This document shows, piece by piece, positions 1 to 11,844 of a DNA stretch of 40,630 bases (the stretch's first letter is position 1; the number at the start of each line of letters is the position of its first letter). The stretch is taken from positions 1-40,630 of IMG/VR virus record IMGVR_UViG_3300023272_000006. One strand, 5' to 3'. The notes under the pieces are model-generated. The model did not search any database, was not told the DNA's origin, and saw nothing but the letters and a program-made list of their open reading frames with translations. A program made the translations under genes and the position numbers. The stretch comes from a virus.

Positions 1-284
1 TTTGTGTTGGCACACGAGGTCTTCGTACCAGGAACCATCTGGAAAGGGTAAATCACTACTCCAACCTCCTCAGTCGTAGGGGGTAGGGGGTGACCCATCT
101 TTGAAGTGAGGTACGTAGTACCGAACGGAAAAGATCCTTGACTGTTTACTAGTTAAGAGGCCCCAAAGGCCTCTACTGACTGGTTTAGAGTATTCGGTCC
201 TACGGACCTCACCCCCTCAGTGGTCTTCGACTCCTTCGGGGGCTGTATCGGAAGGCCCTACGGCCTTCCTCTAGAGGGATGTCG
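1..284. other. Hairpin-rich leader with no confident gene
   Basis: I see no confident gene here. Perfect inverted repeats lie at 110-122 (5-bp stem, loop GTA), 156-174 (AGAGGCC / GGCCTCT, loop CCAAA), 196-208 (GGTCC / GGACC, loop TAC), 250-269 (GGAAGGCC / GGCCTTCC, loop CTAC) and 268-277 (palindrome CCTCTAGAGG). None is followed by a clear T-run, so none is a textbook rho-independent terminator. The first 51 bases are open in frame 1 and end in TAA, so they could be the tail of an upstream gene, but that is too short to support. The hairpin series continues into the next gene. Confidence 0.6.
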
Positions 285-605
285 ATGAAAATGAACAACA
301 GTCGATGGAACTCAAGCAATCGCCGGAAGCGATTGCCTAAGAACTGGAACAGTCTACGAAGGACTGTTCTGAGACGAGATCCGGAGTGCAAACTCCGGTA
401 TGAGGGATGTCAAAGCAGATCCACTGAGGTGGATCACATCAATGCCGGTGACGATCACCGGCTCACTAACCTTCAAGGTGTCTGTTCACCTTGTCATAGG
501 AACAAGTCCTCGGCTGAAGGCCGAAGGGCTAATCAGGAACGTCGGAGCTTGAGGCTTCGGCCTCAAGAGAAACATCCCGGATTCAGGAAATCCGGTAATA
601 ACTAG
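285..605 (+). CDS. HNH endonuclease near the terminase genes
   Basis: A basic protein of about 106 residues with a compact HNH (beta-beta-alpha metal) fold. The pattern is Cys in PECKLRYEGC, then the EVDHI motif holding the catalytic His, then a CSPCH knuckle and an asparagine in NLQGVC. Small HNH proteins beside the terminase genes are common in actinophages, and in HK97-like systems they assist terminase in cos cleavage; that role is inferred here. ATG codons at 279, 285 and 291 share the frame. GAGGG at 274-278 sits 6 bases before 285 but abuts 279, so I chose 285. The C-terminus is Arg/Lys rich. The coding sequence contains a remarkable run of perfect hairpins (separate entry), which may bias its amino acids. 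Confidence 0.85.
   Translation: MKMNNSRWNSSNRRKRLPKNWNSLRRTVLRRDPECKLRYEGCQSRSTEVDHINAGDDHRLTNLQGVCSPCHRNKSSAEGRRANQERRSLRLRPQEKHPGFRKSGNN
316..595 (+). repeat. Array of eight perfect stem-loops inside the HNH gene
   Basis: Eight perfect stems of 7-8 bp with 3-7 nt loops occur in 280 bases: 316-336 (GCAATCGC, loop CGGAA), 347-369 (GAACAGTC, loop TACGAAG), 381-398 (CCGGAGT, loop GCAA), 418-435 (GATCCAC, loop TGAG), 444-462 (GCCGGTGA, loop CGA), 474-493 (CAAGGTG, loop TCTGTT), 548-567 (CTTGAGGC, loop TTCG) and 577-595 (CCGGATT, loop CAGGA). A 5-bp stem lies at 510-524. The 548-567 element is a C(UUCG)G tetraloop and 381-398 has a GNRA loop, which points to RNA-level folding. The stem sequences all differ, so this is not a copied repeat. 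Weaker stems continue at 642-657, 680-694 and 739-759 in the next gene. The function is unknown. Confidence 0.85.
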
Positions 606-624
606 ACTTCCCAGGAGGTTGTCA

Positions 625-1035
625 ATGCCCCCAATGAGGAAGCGCTCTGAGGAGCGCATTAGGCGAAATATTGAACCCCCAACCGAAAAGGTTGTGGCAT
701 TCGGGGCAGTGATTCAGCCTGACCTAGATTTCGAGAACCCTCACCCGACAGTGGTGAGGTTGTGGGATGCAGTAGGTGACTCTGCATTTACCAAGTACTA
801 CGAGCCTTCGGACTGGGAGATGGTCCGTGTGATGCTTCACTTCCTGGATCACCAGTTGAAGGCTGAGAAGAAGAATGCCAACATGATCTCGGCTATCCAG
901 TCGATGATGAACGATCTTCTGTTCAGTGAGGGCTCCCGTCGTAAGGTGCGCCTCGAAGTTGAGCGTGAGGCCATCAAGCAGGGTCAGATCATCAACATTG
1001 CTCAGTTGCTGGACGAACGAGCACGGGGAGCATAA
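625..1035 (+). CDS. Terminase small subunit
   Basis: A protein of 136 residues. It matches the small terminase type seen in L5-like and other actinophages: an Arg-rich N-terminus, the central phrase YYEPSDWEMVRV, and a helical C-terminal half with a basic segment (EGSRRKVRLEVER). Small terminases bind the packaging site and stimulate the large subunit. The frame also has TTG at 619, but AGGAGG at 613-618 lies 6 bases before ATG 625, which fixes the start. It sits between the HNH gene and the lysis genes, more than 4 kb from the large terminase; this split is seen in related phages. The early part of the gene still carries perfect stem-loops. Family assignment rests on sequence pattern and position. 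Confidence 0.75.
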   Translation: MPPMRKRSEERIRRNIEPPTEKVVAFGAVIQPDLDFENPHPTVVRLWDAVGDSAFTKYYEPSDWEMVRVMLHFLDHQLKAEKKNANMISAIQSMMNDLLFSEGSRRKVRLEVEREAIKQGQIINIAQLLDERARGA

Positions 1036-3135: not shown

Positions 3136-3208
3136 GCGGACGAAGCCAGACGGATAAGGCACGGGGCTCATAATCCCGTATTCGCGTGTTCGATTCACGC
3201 CGTCCCCA
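3136..3208 (+). tRNA. tRNA-Met (CAT)
   Basis: Full cloverleaf: acceptor 3136-3142 with 3201-3207, D stem GCC/GGC, anticodon stem CGGGG/TCCCG, loop CTCATAA with anticodon CAT at 3169-3171, and T arm GCGTG/CACGC with loop TTCGATT. The second acceptor pair is a C-C mismatch. G1:C72 is paired, so this is not a standard initiator. It could be elongator Met or a lysidine-modified Ile tRNA. CCA is not encoded. Confidence 0.85.
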
Positions 3209-3210
3209 CT

Positions 3211-3283
3211 TTGTGAGTAGCTTAACGGTAAGAGCGCTGGGATGTGGCCCCGGTGTGTGCGGGTTCGACTCCCGTCTCACAAG
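3211..3283 (+). tRNA. tRNA-His (GTG)
   Basis: Acceptor TTGTGAG (3211-3217) pairs with CTCACAA (3276-3282). D arm GCTT/GAGC, anticodon stem CTGGG/CCCGG with loop ATGTGGC and anticodon GTG at 3244-3246, T arm GCGGG/CCCGT with loop TTCGACT. The usual His identity pair G-1:C73 is absent: the bases are T (3210) and G (3283). Confidence 0.85.
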
Positions 3284-3383
3284 CGAGTTGTCAGTGCATA
3301 CGTTAAACTGTCCGGAAGTGGCCAACCCGATAGACATACGCAGAAACGCGCAATCTGCTATAGGTGTCAGCGGCTAACGCAAA

Positions 3384-3454
3384 TGCCCATTCGTTCAATG
3401 GCAGGACGCCTGGCTCTGATCCAGGTAATCTAGGTTCGAGTCCTGGGTGGGTAG
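3384..3454 (+). tRNA. tRNA-Gln (CTG)
   Basis: Acceptor TGCCCAT (3384-3390) pairs with GTGGGTA (3447-3453). Anticodon stem CCTGG/CCAGG with loop CTCTGAT gives anticodon CTG at 3416-3418. The T loop is TTCGAGT. The weak T1:A72 first pair fits Gln tRNAs. Mycobacteriophage L5 carries tRNAs for Asn, Trp and Gln, all of which occur here too. Confidence 0.9.
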
Positions 3455-3457
3455 CTT

Positions 3458-3492
3458 GTTCAATTTAGAGGTGTGTTCACTCTGATTGAACA
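3458..3492 (+). repeat. Stem-loop in a tRNA spacer
   Basis: TGTTCAAT at 3458-3465 pairs with ATTGAACA at the right arm, and an inner AGAG/CTCT pairing extends the hairpin. It lies between tRNA-Gln and tRNA-Asn. It could be a processing signal for the tRNA transcript; no function is shown. Confidence 0.6.
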
Positions 3493-3510
3493 TATGGTGA
3501 GTTTGAACAT

Positions 3511-3581
3511 TCTCGTATAGCTCAAGGGCAGAGCAGCCGACTGTTAATCGGCGTATCTTGGTTCGAATCCAGGTATGAGAG
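3511..3581 (+). tRNA. tRNA-Asn (GTT)
   Basis: Acceptor TCTCGTA (3511-3517) pairs with TATGAGA (3574-3580). D arm GCTC/GAGC, anticodon stem GCCGA/TCGGC with loop CTGTTAA and anticodon GTT at 3543-3545, T loop TTCGAAT, discriminator G. CCA is not encoded. Confidence 0.92.
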
Positions 3582-3583
3582 CG

Positions 3584-3620
3584 GGAACCTTAAACCGGGC
3601 CTAGTGCACTAGGTGGTTCC
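3584..3620 (+). repeat. Nested inverted repeat between tRNA-Asn and tRNA-Trp
   Basis: An outer pair GGAACC (3584-3589) / GGTTCC (3615-3620) encloses a perfect 14-bp palindrome, CCTAGTGCACTAGG (3600-3613). The structure fills nearly the whole spacer. A role in tRNA processing is a guess. Confidence 0.65.
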
Positions 3621-3623
3621 AAA

Positions 3624-3695
3624 GGGGAGTTAGTTTAGTTGGCAAAATGGCGGTCTCCAAAACCGCAGTCTCAGGTTCGAAGCCTGGACGCCCCG
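3624..3695 (+). tRNA. tRNA-Trp (CCA)
   Basis: Acceptor GGGGAGT (3624-3630) pairs with ACGCCCC (3688-3694) apart from one A-G mismatch. Anticodon stem GCGGT/ACCGC with loop CTCCAAA gives anticodon CCA at 3657-3659. T loop TTCGAAG, discriminator G. Confidence 0.9.
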
Positions 3696-3891
3696 CATGT
3701 TTTCATTTGTGATTTCTTGTAGTGTATGCGGAGGTACTCATGAGTACCCCGAGTGTTTGATTCCGCCCGAGAAGTAACGCACAGAAGGGATTGTCTGTTG
3801 TCCTACCACGACTAGTGGGGCTACAGGAGGCAAGCCCCTCAAACTTTCGGTTATGCCGAACGTAAAGGAACCTGTTTCTCAGGTTCCGTAT
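3696..3891 (+). other. Long tRNA spacer with palindromes
   Basis: No gene or further tRNA could be supported in these 196 bases. It contains a perfect 16-bp palindrome GGTACTCATGAGTACC (3733-3748), a GGGGCT/AGCCCC pair around 3817-3838, a TTCGG/CCGAA hairpin near 3846-3860, and an 8-bp perfect hairpin GGAACCTG/CAGGTTCC with loop TTTCT (3867-3887) just before tRNA-Pro. The spacing suggests a remnant of lost tRNAs or structured processing signals. Confidence 0.5.
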
Positions 3892-3964
3892 CTGGTTATA
3901 GCTCAATTGGTAGAGTACCGCATTTGGGGTGCGGGAGTTGCAGGTTCGAGTCCTGCTAATCAGA
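3892..3964 (+). tRNA. tRNA-Pro (TGG)
   Basis: Acceptor CTGGTTA (3892-3898) pairs with TAATCAG (3957-3963). D arm GCTC/GAGT, anticodon stem CCGCA/TGCGG with loop TTTGGGG and anticodon TGG, T arm GCAGG/CCTGC with loop TTCGAGT, discriminator A. CCA is not encoded. Confidence 0.92.
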
Positions 3965-4000
3965 CGAAGGCGAGGGCAGTGCACAAGTCCTCGTCGGCCC

Positions 4001-4072
4001 GCCCTTTTAGCTCAGTGGGAGAGCACCGCCTTTACACGGCGTAGGCCGGGGGTTCGAATCCCTCAGAGGGTA
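4001..4072 (+). tRNA. tRNA-Val (TAC)
   Basis: Acceptor GCCCTTT (4001-4007) pairs with AGAGGGT (4065-4071), including two G-T pairs. D arm GCTC/GAGC, anticodon loop TTTACAC with anticodon TAC, T loop TTCGAAT, discriminator A. The outermost anticodon-stem pair is mismatched. The 3' acceptor strand contains GAGGG, which may also serve as the ribosome site for the small gene that follows. Confidence 0.88.
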
Positions 4073-4073
4073 C

Positions 4074-9233: not shown

Positions 9234-9246
9234 CAACCCCCAAACC

Positions 9247-9289
9247 CACTTCCCAGGCGGAAGTGTTATCAACCATGCCCAGGAGGCAT
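9247..9289 (+). promoter_or_regulatory. Hairpins before the scaffold gene, one masking the ribosome site
   Basis: CACTTCC (9247-9253) pairs perfectly with GGAAGTG (9259-9265), loop CAGGC. Directly after, ATGCC (9275-9279) pairs with GGCAT (9285-9289) around the loop CAGGA, so the AGGAGG ribosome site (9281-9286) lies partly in the loop and partly in the stem. This could tune scaffold translation. The pairing is seen; regulation is inferred. Confidence 0.5.
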
Positions 9290-9292
9290 CAC

Positions 9293-9787
9293 ATGTCCGA
9301 TGACAACAAGACCGCTACTGAAACCCCTGTGGAGCCTGCCAAGCAGCAGGAAGTAATCCCCGAGTGGGCTCGTAAGCAGATCTCTGAGGCTAACGCCGAG
9401 GCTGCAAAGTACCGGACTGAGCGTAACAACATCGAGGCAGAAACTAAGGCGGCGTTGTCCGCCGACTTCGATACGCAGTTTAAGACGTTGTCGGACGAGA
9501 AGTCCGCGATTACTGCGGAACGTGATACTGCTACCAGTCAGCTCACCAAGCTGAAGGTGGCCCTGGCAGCCGGGATTCCTGGTGAAACCGCTGTCGAATT
9601 CGCTGCACTGCTTCAGGGCAATGACGAGGATGAGTTGACCGCACACGCGGGCAAGCTCAAGGAGATGTTTGGTGCTCCTGGTAAGGCTTCTCGTGCCATT
9701 GACCCATCTCATGGTGCTGGTGCTAACAACACCTCACTGTCTGGGGCTGATCAGTTTGCAGCTCTTATCCAAAAGCACCTTAACTAA
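9293..9787 (+). CDS. Scaffolding protein
   Basis: A protein of 164 residues, acidic and strongly helical: a long coiled-coil centre (about residues 25-100, many Ala/Glu/Lys/Thr), then a flexible Gly/Ser segment and a short amphipathic C-terminal helix (SGADQFAALIQKHL) that would bind the capsid protein. The composition, length and position just before the major capsid gene are standard for siphophage scaffolds. The frame extends to 9263, but AGGAGG at 9281-9286 lies 6 bases before ATG 9293. Confidence 0.88.
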   Translation: MSDDNKTATETPVEPAKQQEVIPEWARKQISEANAEAAKYRTERNNIEAETKAALSADFDTQFKTLSDEKSAITAERDTATSQLTKLKVALAAGIPGETAVEFAALLQGNDEDELTAHAGKLKEMFGAPGKASRAIDPSHGAGANNTSLSGADQFAALIQKHLN

Positions 9788-10872: not shown

Positions 10873-11844
10873 ATGAAGGTAGCAATCTTCGTCCACTACT
10901 ACGTTCCCTACAGGAACGCCGGTTCTGAGACGATGCTCCATGTAATGTGCAAAGCACTCAAGGACAAAGGCCATGAGGTAATCGTGTTCGCCACGGTTCT
11001 CCCAGAGGCTCCCGAGTTCTATGAGTACGAAGGCATCCCGATTTATGTGACCAACGTGGTCTACGGCAAGCAGATGATCGAGTCCTGGAGGCCCGACGTC
11101 ATTGTCTCCCACCATGATAACACAGACAGGGCTGCTCGTATTTCAAACCGGAAGGGAATTCCGTTCGCCTTCCTGATGCACAATGATTTCGACCAGACAG
11201 TACAAAAGCTGGACTACAATCCTGATCTGGTTGTGTTCAACACTGATTGGATGGCCTCCAAGTTCAAGGACAAGACATCTAACTTCATGGTTATGCATCC
11301 ACCCATCCTGACCGACCAACATCGAACCACTCCAGGAGAGTGTGTCACCTTGGTCAACCTGTCAGAGAACAAGGGTGCCAATCTGTTCTACAAGCTCGCA
11401 GAGCGAATGCCAGACATTCAGTTTCTGGGGGTGGAGGGTGGTCACGGGCCACAGATCATCAGGTATGATCTTCCCAATGTGACGATCCAGATGCAAACCG
11501 ACAAGATGAAGCAGGATGTGTGGTCTAGGACCAAGATTCTTCTGATGCCATCTGTCTACGAGTCTTATGGTATGGCCGGAGTAGAAGCGCTAGCTTCGGG
11601 TATCCCTGTATTGGCTCACCCCACACCGGGACTAATCGAGTCCCAAGGTCCATTCGGACATTTCATTGACCGTGATGATGTGGATCAGTATTGCAATGTG
11701 ATCCGCAAGTACTACGAGTCAGATATTTCATACAAAGCCGCTTCTGGACTAGCCCTAAGGCGGTCCGCCGAACTAGACCCAACGCCTGAGTTGGCCCAGT
11801 GGGTCCAAAAGATTGAGGAGTTGGGAAATGCCAGGATTAGTTAA
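10873..11844 (+). CDS. GT4-type (GT-B fold) glycosyltransferase
   Basis: A protein of 323 residues. The N-terminus MKVAIFVHYYVPYRNAGSE is the usual GT4 start (donor/acceptor loop after strand 1), with SHHD and NTDWM segments in the first domain. The second domain has SENKGANLF (nucleotide-sugar side), LLMPSVYESYGMAGVEALAS with the E-x7-E motif of retaining GT4 enzymes, and GIPVLAHPTPGL. It transfers a sugar from a nucleotide donor. Placed between the capsid and connector genes, it probably modifies a virion protein; the acceptor is not known. AGGGA precedes the start by 7 bases. Confidence 0.85.
   Translation: MKVAIFVHYYVPYRNAGSETMLHVMCKALKDKGHEVIVFATVLPEAPEFYEYEGIPIYVTNVVYGKQMIESWRPDVIVSHHDNTDRAARISNRKGIPFAFLMHNDFDQTVQKLDYNPDLVVFNTDWMASKFKDKTSNFMVMHPPILTDQHRTTPGECVTLVNLSENKGANLFYKLAERMPDIQFLGVEGGHGPQIIRYDLPNVTIQMQTDKMKQDVWSRTKILLMPSVYESYGMAGVEALASGIPVLAHPTPGLIESQGPFGHFIDRDDVDQYCNVIRKYYESDISYKAASGLALRRSAELDPTPELAQWVQKIEELGNARIS

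What the first reader, a model, noticed from the sequence alone, without database searches (positions are those of the whole stretch)
316..595. Dense array of perfect RNA-like hairpins inside the HNH endonuclease gene
Eight perfect 7-8 bp stems with 3-7 nt loops fall in 280 bases of coding sequence, and the series extends upstream (110-277) and weakly downstream (642-759). A rough hand estimate for random sequence is about 0.1 such stems in this length. All stems differ in sequence, so this is not a duplicated repeat. One is a C(UUCG)G tetraloop and one has a GNRA loop, which suggests selection on RNA structure while still encoding a working HNH protein. Possible roles: a structured packaging or regulatory RNA, protection of the transcript, or a product of template switching that perfects palindromes.
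Basis: partly seen in the sequence, partly recalled or inferred. Interest (0 to 1): 0.85.

Follow-up and report, generated by a model that had tools for sequence, protein, structure and literature searches.

The report
Hairpin-chain leader of phage late mRNA
The start of this phage's late-gene message is folded into a chain of small perfect hairpins that runs through a nuclease gene and ends in a control-like structure over the next gene's ribosome site; related phages keep the hairpins while changing their letters, and in some of them this stretch is the most abundant viral RNA, with no known job.

Summary
Eight perfect 7-8 bp stems lie in the HNH gene, against 0.12 expected in dinucleotide shuffles and 0.37 in synonymous shuffles (maximum 4 in 5000). 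Folding energy is 5.8 sd below synonymous shuffles. The array is not a property of the HNH gene. It belongs to the left end of L5/cluster-A-type phages, just downstream of the late promoter. In D29 six tandem hairpins span the mapped late start (~230) to gene 1 (392), while its HNH gene, displaced 2 kb, has almost none. In WC1 and Kampy the same stretch is the most transcribed left-arm locus. Stems change by compensatory double substitutions, but hairpin positions shift between lineages. In the window the chain runs on through HNH and ends in a defined element: a hairpin with loop CAGGA, then a small hairpin holding the terminase-small-subunit ribosome site, also with loop CAGGA. This twin element covaries strongly in 45 phages and recurs upstream of the scaffold gene. 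Best reading: a structured late-mRNA leader plus a translational operator. The twin element is clearly RNA. The upstream chain shows no RNA-strand signature (G-U no commoner than A-C), so a DNA-level or template-switching contribution stays open. Function is inferred.

The parts
150..155 (+). candidate -10 box TAGTTA of the late promoter, directly abutting the first strong hairpin
   Evidence: Same layout as in A2/A3-type phages (TATTAT/TATTAA next to hairpin 1). Inference: no TSS data for this phage.
156..174 (+). leader hairpin, 7 bp, loop CCAAA
   Evidence: counterpart in L016 aaggcccCTAAAgggcctt at a similar position
250..269 (+). leader hairpin, 8 bp, loop CTAC
   Evidence: counterpart gggccgccCTTCggcggccc in L016
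279..605 (+). HNH endonuclease gene (PHROG 333, Pfam HNH) through which the hairpin chain runs
   Evidence: 53-58% identity to actinophage relatives
316..336 (+). hairpin 8 bp, loop CGGAA
   Evidence: same place in L016
347..369 (+). hairpin 8 bp, loop TACGAAG
381..398 (+). hairpin 7 bp, loop GCAA
   Evidence: ccagagtGCAAactctgg in L016 = double change
418..435 (+). hairpin 7 bp, loop TGAG
   Evidence: kept in L016
444..462 (+). hairpin 8 bp, loop CGA
   Evidence: near-homologous hairpins in Rhodococcus and mycobacterial phages
474..493 (+). hairpin 7 bp, loop TCTGTT
   Evidence: hairpin at this place in many HNH-first phages
548..567 (+). hairpin 8 bp, loop TTCG
577..595 (+). first hairpin of the twin-CAGG element (7 bp, loop CAGGA) upstream of terminase small subunit
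   Evidence: covariation in 45 phages; model R1 hit 576-624 (this sequence is in the model)
610..618 (+). second hairpin of the twin element: CC-CAGGA-GG, carrying the Shine-Dalgarno AGGAGG
   Evidence: outer pairs covary (AU/GC/UA; CG/UA/GC/AU) in relatives; only 2 bp in the window itself, which has T-T outside
625..1035 (+). terminase small subunit gene, ATG 625
   Evidence: Pfam Terminase_7 E 1e-30 for the longer frame 619-1035; SD to ATG spacing 6 nt
739..759 (+). isolated downstream hairpin, 7 bp
9247..9265 (+). second copy of the element, first hairpin cacttccCAGGCggaagtg
   Evidence: R1 hit 9246-9292, E 0.003
9275..9289 (+). second copy, ribosome-site hairpin atgccCAGGAggcat
9293..9787 (+). 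scaffold gene; the conserved start is ATG 9293, not GTG 9263
   Evidence: PHROG 233 head scaffolding; start aligned with relatives

Best explanation
The array is the structured 5' part of the late mRNA of an L5/cluster-A-type actinophage. Transcription starts at the late promoter near the left end (inferred at about 150-165 in the window). The first ~450 nt of the message fold co-transcriptionally into a chain of small local hairpins, with little unpaired RNA between them. What is kept is the presence of many stable local stems, not their sequence or exact position, so the chain can run through whatever lies first: an untranslated leader in D29-type phages, leader plus HNH gene here. Most likely effect (inferred): the chain shields the leader from ribonucleases and from Rho loading, so the 5' segment accumulates as a stable RNA and the long late operon is transcribed and preserved efficiently. 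The chain ends in a specific element, twin hairpins with loop CAGG(A/T) of which the second holds the ribosome site of the terminase small subunit gene. A second copy sits upstream of the scaffold gene. This element most likely sets or switches translation of these two head-assembly genes, by occluding the ribosome site alone or with a protein that binds both loops. Shown: statistical excess, covariation, position, recurrence, and (published) abundance of this RNA in relatives. Inferred: all function.
For: Excess over dinucleotide and synonymous shuffles. Array follows the left end: stems per 100 bp peak at 200-500 bp and fall to background beyond ~1 kb in 42 phages. D29, Trixie, IronMan, JewelBug, Jeeves, Fameo and Gordonia Battleship carry the hairpins in the leader, while displaced HNH genes have 0-1 stems (D29, Fameo, Battleship and others). 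Gene-1 homologues elsewhere in other phages have no or almost no hairpins upstream. Leader covariation: 99.4% paired, 54 double-changed cells against 14.4 in shuffles. D29 late transcription starts ~230 bp from the left end (PMC5712189); first hairpin 225-243. WC1 nc_1, the most transcribed locus at 30-120 min (PMC10986025), lies between 375 and 717 and contains four hairpins. Kampy's highest left-arm peak at 60 min is non-coding, upstream of gene 1, with a start near 200 bp (PMC4626039). Loop-closing pair C-G in 110/118 and 142/200 hairpins against 105/254 in controls, a feature that matters mainly in a folded single strand. Twin element: 97.5% paired, 92 double-changed cells against 18.8; second copy at the scaffold gene in D29, the window and 17/17 related loci.
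Against: In the chain, G-U is not commoner than A-C (101 against 104 distinct changes; 54 against 45 in maintained hairpins) and most double changes are transversions (78 against 59), unlike normal RNA evolution; tRNA acceptor stems of the same phages hold ~14% G-U. Folding energy with RNA parameters does not prefer the + strand. In D29 hairpin 1 begins next to the -10 box, so its 5' arm may lie partly upstream of the transcription start. D29's right-end region, source of its abundant early RNA, has no such hairpin array, so hairpins are not required for abundance; the WC1 paper says L5, StarStuff, RedRock and SWU1 lack the left-end RNA peak. Several left-end HNH genes have no perfect stems (L026, L031, L118, L127, L129, L130), though most of their leaders do. 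No transcript data exist for this phage.
Confidence: 0.55

Rival explanations
1. Mutational origin: replication template switching repeatedly creates and perfects small palindromes near the left end; the hairpins have little or no function and persist because arms are copied onto each other.
For: Stems almost all perfect; single-mismatch stems, wobble included, occur at control rate. No G-U over A-C. Four exact loop inversions between relatives with the same stem (weak, few cases). Hairpin positions shift between lineages. Template switching is known to create and maintain hairpins (PMC8794818) and coding palindromes exist elsewhere (PMC6649704).
Against: Does not explain why the array sits behind the late promoter in every lineage, moves with the promoter when it lies further in, is absent where gene 1 or HNH lie elsewhere, or why the closing pair is so strongly C-G. 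It could act together with selection.
Confidence: 0.17
2. The hairpins act in DNA: single-stranded hairpins or palindromes near cos serve packaging, replication start or end protection.
For: Strict Watson-Crick pairing without strand polarity; hairpin 1 appears to straddle the late start in D29-type phages; region near cos, HNH and terminase genes.
Against: Distance from the left end varies from ~225 to ~520 bp while distance to promoter and gene 1 is nearly constant; the chain extends into coding sequence only downstream; the terminal element is clearly RNA (loop orientation fixed, overlaps the ribosome site).
Confidence: 0.13
3. Processive antitermination: nascent hairpins bind RNA polymerase and suppress termination along the late operon, like HK022 put RNA.
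For: Position at the start of a ~25 kb late operon; tandem hairpins in nascent RNA; put RNA is a precedent (PMC9378689).
Against: put works through a defined fold and sequence (own knowledge); here stems and most loops vary freely and their number varies.
Confidence: 0.1
4. Base composition or chance.
For: GC-rich stems favour chance pairing.
Against: 0/500 dinucleotide and 0/5000 synonymous shuffles reach the count; covariation.
Confidence: 0.01

Closest known systems
Left-end non-coding late RNA of Kampy (A4), D29 (A2) and Rhodococcus WC1 (nc_1)
   Same: Same place, time and strand; in WC1 and Kampy the hairpin array lies inside the reported abundant region
   Different: The passages read from these papers describe no structure; Kampy's authors judged it not conserved outside A4 by BLAST. 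Here the structure is seen to be conserved without the sequence.
HK022 put RNA
   Same: Tandem nascent-RNA hairpins at the start of a phage operon
   Different: Defined sequence and fold, acts on RNA polymerase; no such conservation here
CsrA/RsmA-type leader operators
   Same: Two hairpins with GGA in the loop, one overlapping the ribosome site (the CsrA layout is recalled, not tested)
   Different: No CsrA gene in the window record; loop is CAGG(A/T) in a 5-nt loop; binding protein unknown
Coding palindromes of Nematomorpha mitochondria / template-switch hairpins
   Same: Perfect inverted repeats inside functional genes
   Different: Those are long (up to 284 bp) and mitochondrial; here 7-10 bp in a row behind a promoter

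Membership tests
Cluster-A-type late leader hairpin chain (group defined here) | Several perfect 7-8 bp hairpins between the late promoter and the first genes, absent further in | tested here: met
   10 stems in 100-640; beyond 800 no 280 bp stretch has more than 3; -10-like box abuts hairpin 1
Cluster-A-type late leader hairpin chain (group defined here) | Transcribed as abundant late RNA | not testable with these tools
   Published for WC1, Kampy and D29 only
Twin-CAGG element (defined here, model R1) | Hairpin with loop CNGG[AT] followed by an SD hairpin CC-CAGGA-GG upstream of terminase small subunit | tested here: met
   window 577-595 and 610-618. The SD stem is only 2 bp in the window.
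Any Rfam family | Match at gathering score | tested here: not met
   Only tRNAs in the window and eight relatives; best sub-threshold hit E 3.6
CsrA/RsmA regulon leader | CsrA present in the phage | tested here: not met
   PF02599 absent from the window record, which is a fragment; the host is unknown
HK022 put-type antiterminator RNA | Conserved two-hairpin put fold and sequence | tested here: inconclusive
   Hairpin number and sequence vary; no direct put comparison was made

The most novel reading that the evidence does not exclude
Cluster-A-type actinophages carry a class of leader RNA in which the conserved property is a chain of small, strictly Watson-Crick hairpins rather than any sequence or fold. 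It runs into coding sequence and ends in a twin-CAGG-loop operator, present twice per genome, through which an unidentified phage or host protein co-regulates translation of terminase small subunit and scaffold.
Probability: 0.3. Interest if true: 0.8.

Novelty: new variant of a known kind. Interest (0 to 1): 0.62.

Why it matters
The left-end non-coding RNA of these widely used phages has been seen in RNA-seq without explanation and was judged not conserved between subclusters. Showing that its structure is conserved gives it a testable anatomy. The twin element is a candidate translational switch for capsid assembly in a phage group used in mycobacterial genetics, and it supplies defined point mutations to test. 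The strict Watson-Crick evolution of the chain is also a natural data set for the question of how perfect stems are maintained without G-U intermediates.

Tried and rejected
Chance or composition: rejected by shuffles. HNH-specific structure: rejected, since displaced HNH genes lack the stems. Known RNA family: none. RNA-strand test by G-U against A-C and by folding energy of the two strands: no polarity for the chain with RNA parameters; a small minus-strand preference with DNA parameters in HNH-first arrays (p 0.008), not interpreted. Stable-tetraloop enrichment: none. Loop inversion as proof of template switching: only 4 exact cases, not enough. Hairpins as the general cause of RNA abundance: not supported, since D29's right-end RNA region has none. 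CsrA: absent from the window record. A simple repeat/operator array was set aside because all stems differ. A first run of synonymous shuffles timed out and was rerun. The tRNA acceptor-stem G-U figure is approximate because a few stems were out of register. The pairwise tally includes hairpins that were lost or misaligned in one partner, so its absolute numbers are not rates. The window's nucleotide sequence had no match in the phage collection.

Full report
What was checked. The eight perfect stems in 316-595 are all present. Dinucleotide shuffles of the HNH gene give 0.116 stems on average, maximum 2 in 500. Codon-preserving shuffles give 0.37 on average, maximum 4 in 5000, and the folding energy is 5.8 standard deviations below them. 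Elsewhere in the window no 280-base stretch beyond position 800 has more than three such stems.

What the window is. It is a 40,630-base virus record with terminase, portal, protease, scaffold and capsid genes on the left, and DNA polymerase, ribonucleotide reductase and DnaB on the right arm in the opposite direction, plus seven tRNAs. This is the layout of mycobacteriophage L5/D29 (cluster A) and Rhodococcus cluster CA. The HNH protein belongs to PHROG 333 and is 53-58% identical to its best relatives there.

The array follows the late promoter, not the gene. Close relatives L015/L016 (75% identical HNH) carry seven stems in and around the gene, L018-L021 five or six, mycobacterial HNH-first phages three or four plus four to eight in the 320 bases upstream, and Rhodococcus phages three plus four. 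In 42 left ends the density peaks 200-500 bases from the end and is at background beyond about 1 kb. In phages where other genes precede HNH, the HNH gene has none or one stem, while the leader has the hairpins: in D29 six, at 225-369, between the published late start near 230 (PMC5712189) and gene 1 at 392. The same series occurs in about 40 A2/A3-type phages at nearly fixed distances from gene 1, even where that gene starts at 640-667 instead of 370-430. A -10-like box abuts hairpin 1 in many of these phages and in the window, TAGTTA at 150-155. Homologues of gene 1 deep inside other phages have no or almost no hairpins upstream.

Link to published RNA. WC1 reports its region between genes 1 and 2 as the most transcribed locus at 30-120 min (PMC10986025); that interval is 375-717 and holds four perfect hairpins, with three more in the HNH frame that follows. 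That frame is annotated on the wrong strand in the Rhodococcus phages. [quoted passage not shown] Kampy has five perfect hairpins in 150-537 and three in HNH. None of the passages read from these papers mentions hairpins there.

Evolution of the stems. In the A2/A3 leader alignment 99.4% of cells pair, 54 cells changed on both sides against 14.4 in shuffles, and slid controls pair in at most 47%. In the HNH gene, positions are only partly shared between lineages. What is kept is the density of stems. The stems are strictly Watson-Crick: A2/A3 leaders have 75 distinct perfect stems and none with a single G-U; in HNH-first arrays single-mismatch stems occur at the control rate. G-U is not commoner than A-C and transversion-type double changes outnumber transitions. 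The loop-closing pair is C-G far more often than in control hairpins, which speaks for folding of a single strand, but neither strand is favoured by RNA folding energy. So selection for local single-strand hairpins is likely. Whether RNA alone explains the strictness is open, and template switching may contribute (PMC8794818).

The terminal element. The last hairpin of the finding, 577-595, belongs to a conserved twin element upstream of the terminase small subunit: a 6-8 bp hairpin with loop CAGGA or CAGGT, then CACC-CAGGA-GGTG-type hairpins whose loop and 3' arm are the Shine-Dalgarno sequence. Across 45 distinct sequences 97.5% of cells pair against 71.8% in shuffles, 92 cells changed on both sides against 18.8, and slid versions pair in at most 55%. 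Here G-U occurs inside the stem and the loop orientation is fixed, as expected of RNA. The 45 rows were chosen by requiring a C-N-G-G-[AT] loop and at least 5 of 7 Watson-Crick pairs in the first hairpin, which raises the paired fraction of helix 1 but not the count of double changes or the pairing of helix 2. In the window itself the second stem is only 2 bp. A covariance model finds a second copy in D29 at 11478-11521 and in the window at 9246-9292, both directly upstream of the scaffold gene, and in 17 of 17 scaffold loci tested. In the window this copy has a different 7 bp stem with loop CAGGC and a 5 bp ribosome-site stem with loop CAGGA. No CsrA is encoded in the window record and Rfam has no match.

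Reading. The array is best explained as the structured start of the late mRNA, ending in a translational operator for terminase small subunit that is shared with the scaffold gene. Function is inferred, not shown. Main weaknesses: no transcript data for this phage, no RNA-strand signature in the upstream chain, hairpin 1 probably overlapping the start site in D29, and the lack of hairpins in D29's right-end region, which also gives an abundant RNA.

Noticed in passing
L003:718-969, L244:718-885: In Rhodococcus cluster CA phages the HNH frame is not called; a minus-strand hypothetical gene is annotated over it. In RGL3, Trike and Tarynearal no gene is called there.
   Followed up: partly
9263-9293: Scaffold gene start is more likely ATG 9293 than GTG 9263, judged by the ribosome-site hairpin and aligned starts of relatives.
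   Followed up: yes
619-1035: PHROG 226 is labelled 'minor tail protein' but Pfam calls the same protein terminase small subunit (Terminase_7).
   Followed up: no
L188:398-428 and relatives: Gene 1 of A2/A3-type phages begins with two mutually exclusive hairpins (such as ggcactcGCTCgagtgcc and gagtgcCTACTGGAgcactc), an attenuator-like arrangement.
   Followed up: no
3136-4073: Seven tRNA genes (Met, His, Gln, Asn, Trp, Pro, Val) between the endolysin and tail-fibre-like genes.
   Followed up: no
L213 and L217 leaders; L189 and L219 leaders: Same stems with loops that are exact reverse complements (CTGAA/TTCAG, CTTGAA/TTCAAG), possible minute inversions.
   Followed up: partly
L242 (D29 right end): The right-end region of D29 that gives the abundant Pleft RNA has no perfect hairpin array, unlike the left end.
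   Followed up: yes
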